Position numbers and translations under genes: made by a program. The notes beneath the pieces were generated by a model, which searched no databases, was not told where the DNA came from, and worked only from the letters and a program-made list of their open reading frames with translations. Shown piece after piece: positions 27,301 through 36,300 of a stretch of DNA of 64,000 nucleotides. The number at the start of each line of letters is the position of its first letter. Position 1 is the first letter of the stretch. Origin of the DNA: Arbacia lixula. Taxonomy: Eukaryota > Echinodermata > Echinoidea > Arbacioida > Arbaciidae. Location of the stretch: contig OZ022587.1 in NCBI GenBank assembly GCA_963669155.1, positions 3,175,179 to 3,239,178 on the forward strand, given 5' to 3'.

Positions 27301-30300
27301 CATCACTTTGATATTCATATTATGTTAATAGAAACATCTTACTCATGTGTATACTTAAATGAGATTAATAGCTAAAACATCTTTTACAAGCAAGACTGTT
27401 TCCTACTTAAGCAGCCTATATTTTATAAACCTATTGCTACAATGAAACACAATATACACTACAAACAGTGAAATGTTCACAACAACATTACAGCTTGTCT
27501 GAAAGAAAAACACACATAAATTGCCCTTGAATAAATTAAAAGACAACACTTCAATGATGTAGACATAAATTGAGTTACATGTTAAATTTCTGAATAAATG
27601 AATAGCTAGTACTGACACTATATGCATAATTTCACAATATTGAGAATTAGTCATATGGTAAGTTTTACTCTAATGCTCAAACAATGATTTAGTCTCTATC
27701 TAATGAATTAATCATTACATATTTCTTTTGGCAAATTTCACATATATATTTGCTCTAACAGACTCACAACACAAAAAATAAATATTCTTTCTACACCATC
27801 ATCTCAATGTAATTTTCAGGTCCAAATTATATTGTTATATTCAGCATAAATATCATTCACTGAAGGAAAATATATATATAAATATATGTAACGGATATGA
27901 ATATATGACCCCAGGCAAGATTTTTATTTTTCTATGTGAAAAGTCCCATGTCTTGATATTATAGCACTTTCACATTTTAAAGTAGAACCTAACTAAGCTG
28001 TATTATGGTCAGTTCACATTTGACTGGATGTAAGGGAAACCTTTAAATGATGACGTACATCTTTTTCGGGTGAACCAGGAGAGTTTAAGGACGAACAAAT
28101 AATCCAACTCCAGTAAATCTTGGCCATTTGCAAAGAAAACTAAAAGAGTGAATATTGCCTAGGGGAGCGCTCAGTCCCTTACGATGACCGAACCCAAGGA
28201 CAATGCTTTAAATCACCAGTGGCTGGACATGTGGTCAAGGGAATTCCACCTCCTCATAAGAGCCTGAACATACACTTGTAAAAGGAATGTTTTGGAGAAC
28301 TAAAAGGTCTGTGCGGAAGTGTATTACTTTTGTTTACAAACACAGCACTTTCTCATTACTTTTGTTTATAAACACAGCACTTTCTCTGAAGTAAAAGTAA
28401 CTGTGACGTAGACTCTGATTTCTATGAATGAACTGAAGGACAATATTATTTTTCTCTGAACTTGAAGAAGGGGTGACAGGAAGTAGACCTATTGACCAAT
28501 AAGAATTAATATTTTATACTCCGTCCCCTTTTCTTATACTCTCAACCAATTGTAATCAAGTAAACACTTCTTCACCAAGTGATTGACATACATTGGAACA
28601 TATAGTGTAGGAGTAATATAAAAGAAGGGTGCAAGGAGGAGAATCCTCAGAGTTTTCCCGGAGTGCCCAGAGTTTTCAGACTTTTTCCAGAGTTTTCAGA
28701 GTTATTCCAGAGTTATGGAGTTTTAGAGTTATAGAGTTTTCCAGAGATCCAGAATAAGTTAGCCCGGGAGGGGAGAGATGACGACAACTCTACATGGGAG
28801 ATGAGACTCCAACAGTCTTGTTATAAGTTGGAGATGGAGAGTCCACTTGACTAAGAACAATTTGAAGCACAAATCATACTCGTGTAAAGTTCCAAGCAAT
28901 AACGCCTCCGGATTGAGATGGACAGACTACGAGTATAGTCTTTACAAAACTCTACGTCTCTGTGGACATCATATAATCTGGGCATGCAGACAACGTCGTG
29001 ATAACTGGACACACGGAGGACCAGCACCGGAGATCGGGATGACAGCGACCGAGATGGGACTCGCGATCGATTAATTATTAGAGAGCTCTCGCGCGCGCTT
29101 TCCAAAACAGAAGTACCGTATGTACGTGAGTAGATAAAATGTTTTGTACTATTTAATCTGTGTATCCCCTGTATCATTAAGTACAATAAATGTTAGCGTT
29201 AATGCTTCCCAATGGCATTTAGATGTGTCGGACCATAAACTTTGTAGCTAATTGTTATGTCTTGTCTTCCCAGACCAGAGTGATGCCTGCAGTGAGAGCG
29301 TGTGGTGGTTTATGTAAGGACATTCAGGTCAGTCAACCATTTAAATATTAATGTCTGGACCCTAGCATATTACATGCAGACCAAACGATAAAGTGGCTCC
29401 CCAACCATGAATGCTATGGGTTACAGCACGTTATTTGTTCGTCCTTAAACTCTCCTGGTTCACCCGAAAAAGATGTACGTCATCATTTAAAGGTTTCCCT
29501 TACATCCAGTCAAATGTGAACTGACCATAATACAGCTTAGTTAGGTTCTACTTTAAAATGTGAAAGTGCTATAATATCAAGACATGGGACTTTTCACATA
29601 GAAAAATAAAAATCTTGCCTGGGGTCATATATTCATATCCGTTACATCTACCCCGCCTCTCAAATAAATGTCGACCGCGACATTTGTAAAATATCGAGTC
29701 AAACTTGGTATCTTCTTCACGCAGTGATTGACATTCTTAACTTGACTTAGCAAACACTTAATACATGATAACATTGCTACGTGTACCTCTCACATCATTC
29801 ATTCGTAAAGGCACTCACACATCAGCAAAACATTCATATACCTTAGAATATATCATACTGGTGATACGGTCCAATAATGAGATTAACCATAGGCCTATAT
29901 GTGGCTGATAATTATGCGAGCACATCATAAGAAACATAGAAAATAAACAACTGTAAAGTTGAGTCACTTTTACAACGAACAATAACAAAAGTACAAGAAA
30001 AATCAATATAAATCAATCAATGCCTTTGATAACCATTGTTCTCCAGTGATCTAACATGGTCTCGTTATAGAGAATAGTACTCACATAGTATAAATGTATC
30101 CTATCCATCTTAGTGGATATCTCAAAACCTAACAATGCTTGTTTCTGTAACATCTGCAATTGTTTTGGCTATCATATTCGACTTCAATACACTGCAAATA
30201 CAACATATTTCGCCATCCCTCAACTTTTTCAAATCAGCTTGGACGGTCCACTTGGGACATGTACTTCAACATATCATATCATGTCATACATACGGCAAAG

Positions 30301-33300: not shown

Positions 33301-36300
33301 AGAGGTACAAAATAATAAATTCCTTGCTGTTCCCAAACCAAAACATGCTCAGTGGAGTATGACCTATTTTTTCTGTCAACCATCCCCAAAAAGTATAACA
33401 TATAGTATATCGTGCTGATAACGCGAAGGTCGTGAGTTCCGTGCTGTAACCCATAGCATTCATGGTTGGGGAGCCACTTTATCGTTTGGTCTGCATGTAA
33501 TATGCTAGGGTCCAGACATTAATATTTAAATGGTTGACTGACCTGAATGTCCTTACATAAACCACCACACACTCTCACTGCAGGCATCACTCTGGTCTGG
33601 GAAGACAAGACATAACAATTAGCTACAAAGTTTATGGTCCGACACATCTAAATGCCATTGGGAAGCATTAACGCTAACATTTATTGTACTTAATGATACA
33701 GGGGATACACAGATTAAATAGTACAAAACATTTTATCTACTCACGTACATACGGTACTTCTGTTTTGGAAAGCGCGCGCGAGAGCTCTCTAATAATTAAT
33801 CGATCGCGAGTCCCATCTCGGTCGCTGTCATCCCGATCTCCGGTGCTGGTCCTCCGTGTGTCCAGTTATCACGACGTTGTCTGCATGCCCAGATTATATG
33901 ATGTCCACAGAGACGTAGAGTTTTGTAAAGACTATACTCGTAGTCTGTCCATCTCAATCCGGAGGCGTTATTGCTTGGAACTTTACACGAGTATGATTTG
34001 TGCTTCAAATTGTTCTTAGTCAAGTGGACTCTCCATCTCCAACTTATAACAAGACTGTTGGAGTCTCATCTCCCATGTAGAGTTGTCGTCATCTCTCCCC
34101 TCCCGGGCTAACTTATTCTGGATCTCTGGAAAACTCTATAACTCTAAAACTCCATAACTCTGGAATAACTCTGAAAACTCTGGAAAAAGTCTGAAAACTC
34201 TGGGCACTCCGGGAAAACTCTGAGGATTCTCCTCCTTGCACCCTTCTTTTATATTACTCCTACACTATATGTTCCAATGTATGTCAATCACTTGGTGAAG
34301 AAGTGTTTACTTGATTACAATTGGTTGAGAGTATAAGAAAAGGGGACGGAGTATAAAATATTAATTCTTATTGGTCAATAGGTCTACTTCCTGTCACCCC
34401 TTCTTCAAGTTCAGAGAAAAATAATATTGTCCTTCAGTTCATTCATAGAAATCAGAGTCTACGTCACAGTTACTTTTACTTCAGAGAAAGTGCTGTGTTT
34501 ATAAACAAAAGTAATGAGAAAGTGCTGTGTTTGTAAACAAAAGTAATACACTTCCGCACAGACCTTTTAGTTCTCCAAAACATTCCTTTTACAAGTGTAT
34601 GTTCAGGCTCTTATGAGGAGGTGGAATTCCCTTGACCACATGTCCAGCCACTGGTGATTTAAAGCATTGTCCTTGGGTTCGGTCATCGTAAGGGACTGAG
34701 CGCTCCCCTAGGCAATATTCACTCTTTTAGTTTTCTTTGCAAATGGCCAAGATTTACTGGAGTTGGATTATTTGTTCGTCCTTAAACTCTCCTGGTTCAC
34801 CCGAAAAAGATGTACGTCATCATTTAAAGGTTTCCCTTACATCCAGTCAAATGTGAACTGACCATAATACAGCTTAGTTAGGTTCTACTTTAAAATGTGA
34901 AAGTGCTATAATATCAAGACATGGGACTTTTCACATAGAAAAATAAAAATCTTGCCTGGGGTCATATATTCATATCCGTTACATATATATATTAATGAAA
35001 ATGATAAAGAATCAGACATAAATCAGTCACCTTTTTTTGATCATTTTTACAACGATCAAGTAAAGTAAAAAAAAAATTCAGAGGCCTTTTTGGAAATATA
35101 TCTTTGATACTATTCGATGTCAAATCAACAAATGGAAATTGGTGCAGTTTTCATATAAAGTGGCAAAAAAAGCCAGACAAAGACAATTTAATGAAAGTCA
35201 TTCACTAAGGAGAGAAAAATACAGAATGATGAAGGAGGAAAAGAGAACTGGGGAGCCAAAAACACAGAAATAAAAAATATAAATGTATTCTCAACAGGAA
35301 GAAAACATTTACAAAAGAAGTACATTTACAAGAGCTTAAATGTAAAAATCATAAGTAGCAAGATACGAGGTTAAGAAGTTGGAGAAGATGATCACATACC
35401 TAACGTGACGTTGTAGATGCCAATGATGGGACCTGCTGCACAGATATACAGACCGGATTGTTGGGTGGTGAGGCTGTCCAGATGGAGAGTGGTGACGTTC
35501 ATGCCTTCAAAGGCTACATGCACATTGTCAGAGCCACCTGTACACAAGAGAAGGGATACCATTCTTTCTTTTTACTATTTATATCTGCTTGATCTGCAAG
35601 TGAATTCATTGACTGACTAGATGGAGAGTGGTGTAATTCCCCTCTTGAAAGGCTACATGCATATTGTCCGATCCACCTATACACAAGAGAAGGGATACCA
35701 TTCTTCATTTTGATATATGGGTCAATCCACGTGAAATCAACCAATGGTGTTAACCCGACCCCCTTCAATTTTCTTCAAACTCGCACCAAATGTTCCCCCA
35801 AGTGTCTGACGGAAGATTCTGAAATATTTTGCCCCAAGGTCAAATGGTTGCTAAGATACGGCCTCCCTTAGCAACCAATGCGTGATCGAACAACTGAGTT
35901 TAAATAAAATTTGCTATTTTTGATTGACCGCTGCAGCCAAGTTAGATGAGTTACATTGCTCATTTCCTGTAAATTGAAAGAACTTTATAGTCTTAACATG
36001 CACAATGTATTCTGGTGCTGATCGGTCCACCCATTCTTACGCATGACGTCAAGGAAAATGGTGTTAAGCGTCAATGGCAATGTGTTCGGGTGCATGTTTG
36101 GAAGCTGATAACTTTAAAACTCAATTAGTTTAGAACCCACTATTTTGCAGATATATAGTCGTTTACTAGCTCTACCCACCTACCAAAAATTGATCAAAAA
36201 ACATGCATCGTTTTCTCGTAGAGCGCCCTCAAAGTTTGATTTTTTTAAAAAGTTGCCAAGTTCAAGGTCTTAAATCACCACTCGTCCCATTGAGGATCGA

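What the first reader, a model, noticed from the sequence alone, without database searches (positions are those of the whole stretch)
27887..34983. Pol-less LTR retroelement whose only gene is an RRM-bearing, PNMA-like Gag
Seen: LTR ends TGTAAC...GTTACA, a primer site, a polypurine tract, and only gag frames with RRM, capsid-like region and CCHC knuckles. Known: vertebrate PNMA genes are domesticated Ty3-type gags with an N-terminal RRM-like domain, a capsid and, in some members, a -1 frameshift. Inference: this is a still-mobile invertebrate element with the PNMA architecture. It may represent the kind of ancestor from which capsid-forming PNMA genes arose, or a capsid-only parasite of full-length elements.
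Basis: partly seen in the sequence, partly recalled or inferred. Interest (0 to 1): 0.9.

Follow-up and report, generated by a model that had tools for sequence, protein, structure and literature searches.

The report
Pol-less jumping gene with PNMA-like capsid
This is a young mobile element in an animal genome that has lost the genes for copying itself but keeps a selected RNA-binding capsid gene like those tamed into mammalian PNMA genes, so it probably travels with the enzymes of intact cousins in the same genome.

Summary
The element is real. It lies on the minus strand with LTR-type ends, an RRM + PNMA-type capsid + CCHC Gag, a polypurine tract, a primer site and no pol. Four near-copies were found (Gag 93-97% identical); three show ordinary direct LTRs, and no pol was seen in any. 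More distant relatives in the same genome (Gag 44-49%) carry the same Gag plus a Ty3-type pol in the same place, open in six of seven. The pol-less form is therefore a derivative, not a primordial gag-only element. It is not simple debris: Gag is under purifying selection among pol-less copies, and the -1 frameshift site (TTTAAAC) is kept and leads into a short ORF with two extra CCHC knuckles. A second pol-less lineage has the same layout, and its knuckle module is much closer than the flanking genes, so it was probably exchanged by recombination. I read it as an animal counterpart of plant pol-less, gag-bearing elements, mobilised in trans. RRM-like-CA-NC Gags are already published for vertebrate metaviruses; homology of this RRM to the PNMA N-terminus is not shown.

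The parts
27883..27886 (.). left 4-bp target-site copy TATA
   Evidence: also 34984-34987; weak because the flank is AT-rich, but 4 bp is the size seen in L012, L014 and L018 (L011 does not match: CAGA/CATA)
27887..29430 (+). complete LTR plus 5 nt (GCACG) in inverted orientation, joined where the 3' LTR should continue
   Evidence: 1 mismatch in 1,544 to 33440-34983; junction
29431..29646 (-). truncated 3' LTR: first 216 nt of U3, identical to 34768-34983
29647..29661 (-). polypurine tract GAGAGGCGGGGTAGA
   Evidence: same tract in L011, L012, L014
29662..31068 (-). 3' non-coding region; 1,361 nt of it found only in the window, L011, L012, L014 and in fragments
31069..31872 (-). ORF2 in the -1 frame: 267 aa from FKR
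31648..31776 (-). 69-nt tandem unit coding the two extra CCHC knuckles of ORF2
   Evidence: TRF; zf-CCHC 2.1e-9
31796..31858 (-). predicted stem and pseudoknot downstream of the shift site
   Evidence: pairing holds in 98.2% of cells; covariation does not exceed shuffles
31866..31872 (-). slippery heptamer T_TTA_AAC
   Evidence: (13 of 13 elements)
31833..33125 (-). gag ORF1, 430 aa plus stop
32013..32063 (-). Gag zinc knuckle (residues 355-371)
32238..32792 (-). PNMA-type capsid region (residues ~112-296)
32895..33101 (-). RRM (residues 9-77)
33410..33439 (-). primer-binding site: 30-nt match to nt 27-56 of tRNA-Ile(GAT) genes
33445..34983 (-). 5' LTR, TGTAAC...GGGTTACA
34984..34987 (.). right 4-bp target-site copy TATA

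Best explanation
It is a recently inserted copy of a non-autonomous Ty3/Gypsy-type LTR retrotransposon family that descends from pol-bearing elements and has lost PR-RT-RNaseH-IN. It keeps a selected Gag (RRM, PNMA-type capsid, zinc knuckle) and the Gag/Pol frameshift site, which now would make Gag fused to a short tail with two added zinc knuckles. Inferred mechanism: its RNA is translated into Gag and Gag-ORF2. These assemble, perhaps together with Gag-Pol of intact relatives of the L019 or L015 kind, and the RNA is reverse transcribed and integrated by the borrowed enzymes. The 3' end of this copy is probably an aberrant reverse-transcription product carrying an inverted LTR. Shown: anatomy, relatives with and without pol, selection on Gag, the conserved shift site, near-identical LTRs (recent insertion) of the copies that could be measured. 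Inferred: translation, frameshifting, trans-mobilisation, the identity of the helper.
For: Five W-clade elements (window, L011-L014), no pol frame seen in any; L011, L012 and L014 have direct LTRs 99.6-100% alike. Seven pol-bearing relatives with the same Gag: three in the L015 clade, four in the L019 clade; RT matched in all seven, in open frames of 1,462-1,585 aa in six and 1,264 aa in L016. Pfam RVT_1, RNaseH and integrase in L015 and L019, the two scanned; the protease match is below its cut-off. L018 is the same kind of derivative made from an L019-type element: L019 5691-9540 is gone and ~215 nt of knuckle code stands there. Shift site in 13 of 13. Knuckle module pS 0.43 against 0.73-0.87 in 17 gag windows and 0.79 in the tail, Fisher P 8e-7. 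RT search: after the 99-100% and 70-75% groups the next match is 59% (95 of 999 candidates scored), so no W-type pol partner was seen. U3 ends agree with L019 at 17 of 19 positions although BLAST aligns nothing else of the LTRs.
Against: No RNA, protein or mobility data. W's ORF2 tail resembles pol C-termini only marginally. W's Gag is 44-49% identical to that of the candidate helpers, so co-assembly is uncertain. The searches score only the best candidates and the assembly may be incomplete, so a close pol partner could be missed. Covariation for the frameshift structure does not exceed shuffles, and single-strand folding is not unusual for W (z 0.27). L011 has no exact target-site copy.
Confidence: 0.8

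Rival explanations
1. Simple defective deletion products: the pol-less copies are passive debris, and Gag looks conserved only because it was functional in a recent pol-bearing parent.
For: Pol-bearing relatives exist. L018 is a clear deletion derivative of an L019-type element, and even shorter derivatives lacking the start codon, RRM and capsid exist (L031).
Against: In all five W copies no pol was seen, and they differ by gag dS 0.05-0.13, while the LTR pairs that could be measured (L011, L012, L014) differ by less than 0.5%, so most divergence arose while the lineage was replicating without pol. Gag dN/dS stays 0.10-0.33. ORF2 (1.6-3.0% different) is closer than the 3' non-coding region (4.3-7.2%) in 6 of 6 pairs; Gag is in 5 of 6.
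Confidence: 0.12
2. Gag-only elements came first and gained pol later (a primordial PNMA-type capsid element).
For: No close pol partner of the W clade was seen, and the two pol-less lineages share one layout.
Against: In L018 both sides of the missing stretch match pol-bearing L019 at the DNA level, including 3' pol code. All 13 elements keep a Gag/Pol-type shift site.
Confidence: 0.03
3. The inverted outer ends of the window copy are an assembly error, or the element is a DNA transposon with long terminal inverted repeats.
For: No other copy seen has this arrangement: L011, L012 and L014 have direct LTRs, and of 41 matches to a 501-bp LTR piece only the window pair is inverted and close together. 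No reads were available.
Against: The arms stop exactly where the tRNA match stops (33439/33440), that is at the predicted 5' end of minus-strand DNA, and at the LTR terminus with 4-bp target copies. Primer site, polypurine tract and Gag show an LTR retroelement.
Confidence: 0.2
4. Domesticated host gene(s) of PNMA type.
For: Intact Gag under purifying selection without pol.
Against: LTRs, primer site and polypurine tract, 4-bp target copies at 4 of 5 elements checked (window, L012, L014, L018; not L011), near-identical LTRs at different places.
Confidence: 0.02

Closest known systems
Athila pol-less elements of Arabidopsis (PMC2410132; passages read)
   Same: LTR elements without pol that keep Gag ORFs under purifying selection, recombine with distant relatives and are thought to be mobilised in trans
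   Different: Plant lineage, some with env; the passages read mention no RRM, no PNMA-type capsid and no frameshift into a non-pol frame with added knuckles
TR-GAG elements of plants (search listing only; definition recalled)
   Same: Terminal repeats plus gag only
   Different: Plant elements; this one is in an animal genome and retains a frameshift site and a second ORF
Vertebrate metaviruses with RBD-CA-NC Gag, e.g. Gypsy-30_Ami (PMC11011659; abstract, sections 9 and 10 and passages read)
   Same: N-terminal RRM-like domain, capsid, zinc knuckle; relatives of PNMA
   Different: Their RBD was found by structure, whereas this RRM is recognised by sequence; their PNMA proxy has a dUTPase, none was listed in the two pol frames scanned here; no pol-less family was mentioned in what I read
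PNMA3/PNMA5 (PMC5009743; section 12 and passages read)
   Same: PNMA capsid gene with a -1 frameshift (classical heptamer and H-type pseudoknot in Ma3, Ma5 said to appear similar) leading into a frame that is not pol
   Different: Immobile host genes; relation of the trans-frame to ORF2 here untested
BARE2 of barley (PMC3735527; abstract and outline read)
   Same: Non-autonomous LTR element packaged in partner particles
   Different: BARE2 cannot make Gag; here Gag is kept and pol lost

Membership tests
Ty3/Gypsy (Metaviridae) LTR retrotransposon | PR-RT-RNaseH-IN order in pol | tested here: not met
   No pol in the window element; RT-RNaseH-IN in that order, with a sub-threshold protease match before them, in relatives L015 and L019. 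Filed only as a non-autonomous derivative of this group.
Ty3/Gypsy (Metaviridae) LTR retrotransposon | LTRs with primer site and polypurine tract, short target duplication | tested here: met
   target copies at 4 of 5 elements (not L011); in this copy the 3' LTR is truncated and followed by an inverted LTR
PNMA capsid family | PNMA-type capsid (PF14893) | tested here: met
   13 of 13 Gags at E<=0.001; only PNMA2 chains hit in PDB by the capsid profile
PNMA capsid family | N-terminal PNMA_N domain (PF20846) | tested here: not met
   Not listed at E<=1 for W Gag. The genome search for PF20846 gave 0, but its control also gave 0, so that search is inconclusive. RRM_1 is met instead.
PNMA capsid family | Domesticated, immobile host gene | tested here: not met
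   LTRs and several copies
Pol-less, gag-bearing LTR element (Athila pol-less / TR-GAG kind) | LTRs plus gag, no pol | tested here: met
Pol-less, gag-bearing LTR element (Athila pol-less / TR-GAG kind) | Gag under purifying selection without pol | tested here: met
Pol-less, gag-bearing LTR element (Athila pol-less / TR-GAG kind) | Mobilised by enzymes in trans | not testable with these tools
   Needs cells or insertion polymorphism; consistent
Programmed -1 frameshift | X_XXY_YYZ slippery site with downstream stem/pseudoknot | tested here: inconclusive
   Slippery site in 13 of 13; structure pairs in 98.2% of cells, against 30-61% when slid, but covariation does not exceed shuffles (130 of 500)

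The most novel reading that the evidence does not exclude
Pol-less, RRM/PNMA-type Gag elements with a frameshift into a knuckle-bearing non-pol frame form a long-lived mobile class that passes its knuckle module between lineages by recombination. Domesticated frameshifting PNMA genes such as PNMA3/5, whose trans-frame is not pol, were founded by elements of this kind rather than by full-length ones.
Probability: 0.12. Interest if true: 0.85.

Novelty: new variant of a known kind. Interest (0 to 1): 0.6.

Why it matters
Capsid genes of the PNMA type have been tamed in mammals, and why a gag alone (with a leftover frameshift) should be kept is an open question. Here the same kind of gene, with its frameshift site but without pol, is under selection inside an element that moved recently, next to pol-bearing cousins. 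That gives a natural system in which to test how a gag-only element pays its way (cis packaging, co-assembly, interference) and whether the pol-less layout precedes domestication.

Tried and rejected

PNMA_N against the genome gave nothing, but its control also gave nothing, so no conclusion is drawn. MHC class II beta likewise gave 0 with a silent control, so 'not a jawed vertebrate' is not shown; wnt exons (40 matches) show an animal genome (that wnt is animal-specific is recalled).

IMG/VR scan with the Gag alignment: 31 pattern matches, none a relative. Rfam on the window: 0 matches at gathering scores.

I first thought the primer site carried an inosine signature (tRNA-Ile AAT read as GAT; note). 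Rejected: three of eight fetched loci hold tRNA-Ile genes with GAT written in the DNA.

A DNA-transposon reading of the inverted ends was considered and rejected (see rivals).

W's ORF2 tail as a remnant of pol C-terminus: only marginal. Alignment scores were 68 against a shuffle maximum of 65 (L021), 70 against 72 (L018), 46 against 69 (L017), 300 shuffles each. For L018 the pol origin of the tail is clear at the DNA level.

The ORF2 knuckles as a copy of a Gag knuckle: no close match among the four Gags compared (47-63% nt identity).

L013 was left out of the ORF2 selection test because its ORF2 is cut short; L031 was left out of the Gag alignment, and L013 out of the frameshift alignment.

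Literature searches for print precedent: (all 10 used; open-access library only). I did not find this combination described, but subscription papers and Repbase were not searched.
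Full report
WHAT IS THERE. The element lies on the minus strand between 27887 and 34983. Gag ORF1 (33125-31833, 430 aa) contains an RRM (Pfam RRM_1, E 6.6e-13), a PNMA-type capsid (2.4e-7, above Pfam's cut-off) and a CCHC knuckle; ORF2, in another frame, has two further knuckles. The same three Gag domains are found in 13 of 13 Gags aligned from this genome, the window's included. A profile of the capsid region alone (four sequences) hits only PNMA2 chains in the PDB at E<=1 (2.5e-9 and 9e-8). 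The RRM resembles PUF60, ELAV and poly(A)-binding protein RRMs. The Pfam model of the PNMA N-terminus was not listed for it at E<=1, so an origin in common with the PNMA N-terminal domain is not shown.

THE ENDS. The outer ends are inverted, not direct: arms 27887-29430 and 33440-34983 are complementary over 1,544 nt with one mismatch (searches give 100% and 99.87% over 1,553 nt with flank). A third, truncated copy of the LTR start, 216 nt and identical (29431-29646), stands next to the polypurine tract. Three near-copies, L011, L012 and L014, have ordinary direct LTRs of about 1.6 kb, 99.6-100% alike, so the inverted end is peculiar to this copy among those seen. The inverted arm stops exactly at 33440, the base after a 30-nt match (33410-33439) to nt 27-56 of a tRNA-Ile gene. 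That is where minus-strand DNA would begin if an internally cut tRNA were the primer. I therefore think (inference) that the plus strand, after 216 nt of U3, switched to a complete plus-strand strong-stop DNA, giving a molecule with two U3 ends that could still integrate. Without reads an assembly error cannot be excluded. Abnormal template switching producing complex LTR insertions has been proposed in wheat relatives (PMC1950507; passages read; the words inverted and palindrome do not occur in it).

PRIMER SITE. The 28-mer pattern occurs 30 times exactly and 49 times with up to two mismatches in the genome; the backwards control gives 0. Of the eight loci fetched, three are tRNA-Ile(GAT) genes by ARAGORN and five read like primer sites, without a tRNA gene; the other places were not read. 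The match is internal and lacks the tRNA 3' end; in L012, L013, L021 and L022 it is interrupted after its first part. Use of a tRNA fragment as primer is known for copia (recalled) and is an inference here.

RELATIVES IN THE SAME GENOME. The genome held is 607 Mb in 590 contigs and unnamed; the window lies on C12. It has wnt exons (40 matches; 14 control genomes silent), so it is an animal's (inference); a search for MHC class II beta gave none but its control is silent too, so whether it is an invertebrate is not shown. A Gag search gave 61 matches (98 of 281 candidates scored, so lower bounds). W clade: the window, L011, L012, L013 and L014, Gag 93-97% identical among themselves; no pol frame was seen in any, though in L013 a 3' LTR was not found. 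L015 clade (L015-L017) and L019 clade (L019-L022): Gag 44-49% identical to W, each with pol in the -1 frame. RT matched in all seven, in open frames of 1,462-1,585 aa in six; L016 has 1,264 aa and an internal duplication. Pfam finds RT, RNaseH and integrase in L015 and L019, the two scanned, and an aspartic protease match below its cut-off. The RT search (95 of 999 candidates scored) gave 4 matches at 99-100%, 4 at 70-75% (in three elements), then 59% or less. A W-type RT of intermediate similarity was not seen. A 501-bp piece of the W LTR has 41 matches (40 of 47 candidates scored): two in the window, two each in L011, L012 and L014, one in L013, and 32 others that look like solo LTRs or fragments; no further close same-strand pair brackets an element. 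Of the W 3' non-coding region there are 8 matches: the window, L011, L012, L014 and fragments on C15 and C9.

A SECOND POL-LESS LINEAGE. L018 has Gag 94-95% identical to L019-L022 and LTRs 100% alike over 1,935 bp, but nothing of L019 between 5691 and 9540; instead about 215 nt encode two knuckles, and the code then resumes in the 3' end of pol. The module search gave 14 matches: four full W-clade ones, a stub in L013, five of L018 type and four weak ones. Four L018-type loci (C5 twice, C14, C17) match only Gag residues from about 323 on, with one TGA inside in three of them (98 of 774 candidates scored). One was read (L031): LTRs 98.8% alike over the 1,172 bp compared, with the start codon, RRM and capsid deleted, and knuckle, shift site and ORF2 kept. 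So there is a series: full element, pol-less, and pol- plus capsid-less.

FRAMESHIFT. TTTAAAC in the Gag frame, giving the FKR start of ORF2 or pol, is present in 13 of 13 elements. U_UUA_AAC is among the most shift-prone heptamers (PMC5009743, passages read). A 9-bp stem and a 5-bp pseudoknot can form in nearly all of 8 distinct rows (98.2% of cells, against 30-61% when slid), but covariation does not exceed the shuffles (130 of 500), and single-strand folding is unremarkable for W and L015 and moderate for L018 and L019 (z 0.27, 0.18, -1.33, -2.42).

SELECTION. Among the five W-clade Gags dN/dS is 0.10-0.33 (10 pairs); for ORF2 it is 0.26-0.62 (6 pairs; L013 left out). For two disjoint pairs Gag gives P about 1e-12, or 3e-8 if the neutral synonymous share is raised 1.3-fold; ORF2 gives 0.003-0.017, or 0.05-0.15. 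ORF2 diverges less than the 3' non-coding region in 6 of 6 pairs (1.6-3.0% against 4.3-7.2%); Gag does so in 5 of 6 (L011-L014: 4.5% against 4.3%). Since the measurable LTR pairs differ by less than 0.5%, most divergence arose during replication, in copies in which no pol was seen. Gag is thus very probably still needed; for ORF2 the case is fair, not strong.

EXCHANGE OF THE KNUCKLE MODULE. W and L018 are saturated at synonymous sites in Gag (pS 0.73-0.87 in all 17 windows) and in the ORF2 tail (0.79), but the module has pS 0.43 (27 of 62 sites against 223 of 290; Fisher P 8e-7). The stretch at the shift site is 91% identical over 45 nt even to pol-bearing L019, so this could be where templates switch. 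An unrecognised RNA constraint on the module is an alternative.

HOW IT WORKS (inference). The pol-less RNA makes Gag and, by frameshift, Gag with extra knuckles; the knuckles may favour packaging of its own RNA in particles that also hold Gag-Pol of intact cousins. The candidate helper is of the L019 kind, because the first 19 bases of U3 agree at 17 positions (TGTARCGGRTATGAATATA) although BLAST aligns nothing else of the LTRs; L015's U3 start differs. Against this, W Gag is slightly closer to L015.

AGAINST WHAT IS KNOWN. Pol-less, gag-bearing LTR elements with selected Gag, recombination and presumed trans-mobilisation are known from Arabidopsis Athila (PMC2410132, passages read), and gag-only TR-GAGs from plants (listing only). 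RBD-CA-NC Gags are known from 12 Repbase metavirus consensi and seven vertebrate genomes (PMC11011659, section 10 read). PNMA3 and PNMA5 also shift into a frame that is not pol (PMC5009743 section 12), which is the basis of the bold reading; nothing here tests descent.

Noticed in passing
L031 2600-3933 (C17:21361500-21367500); C5:14112678, C5:14117241, C14:13893219: Capsid-less and pol-less derivatives that keep only the Gag knuckle, shift site and ORF2; the two on C5 are 4.56 kb apart, as in a tandem array. L031 was read; the others are known by protein match only.
   Followed up: partly
window 33410-33439 and relatives: Primer site matches 30 nt inside tRNA-Ile(GAT), ending at nt 56, not the tRNA 3' end; the same kind of site is shared by pol-bearing relatives.
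   Followed up: partly
L035, L036, L037: ARAGORN calls tRNA-Ile genes with anticodon GAT, unusual for a eukaryotic nuclear genome (recalled).
   Followed up: no
L021 pol C-terminus (residue ~1369 of 1459) and L018 ORF2 (residue ~253 of 343): A strongly hydrophobic, membrane-like stretch at the end of pol, kept in the pol-less L018 but absent from W.
   Followed up: no
L029, L030: Other pol-bearing elements with a strong PNMA capsid (E 8e-28 and 3e-34) but no RRM listed, so the RRM may mark one clade in this genome.
   Followed up: no
window 6001-8000: Strongly purine-rich block (GC skew 0.58, AT skew 0.40) with GA repeats.
   Followed up: no
window 22180-22804 and 38125-38935: Tandem arrays of 157 bp (4 copies, 98% matches) and 161 bp (4.8 copies, 77%).
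   Followed up: no
L016 7083-7644 and 9340-9901: A 562-bp direct duplication inside the pol region of this otherwise L015-type copy.
   Followed up: no
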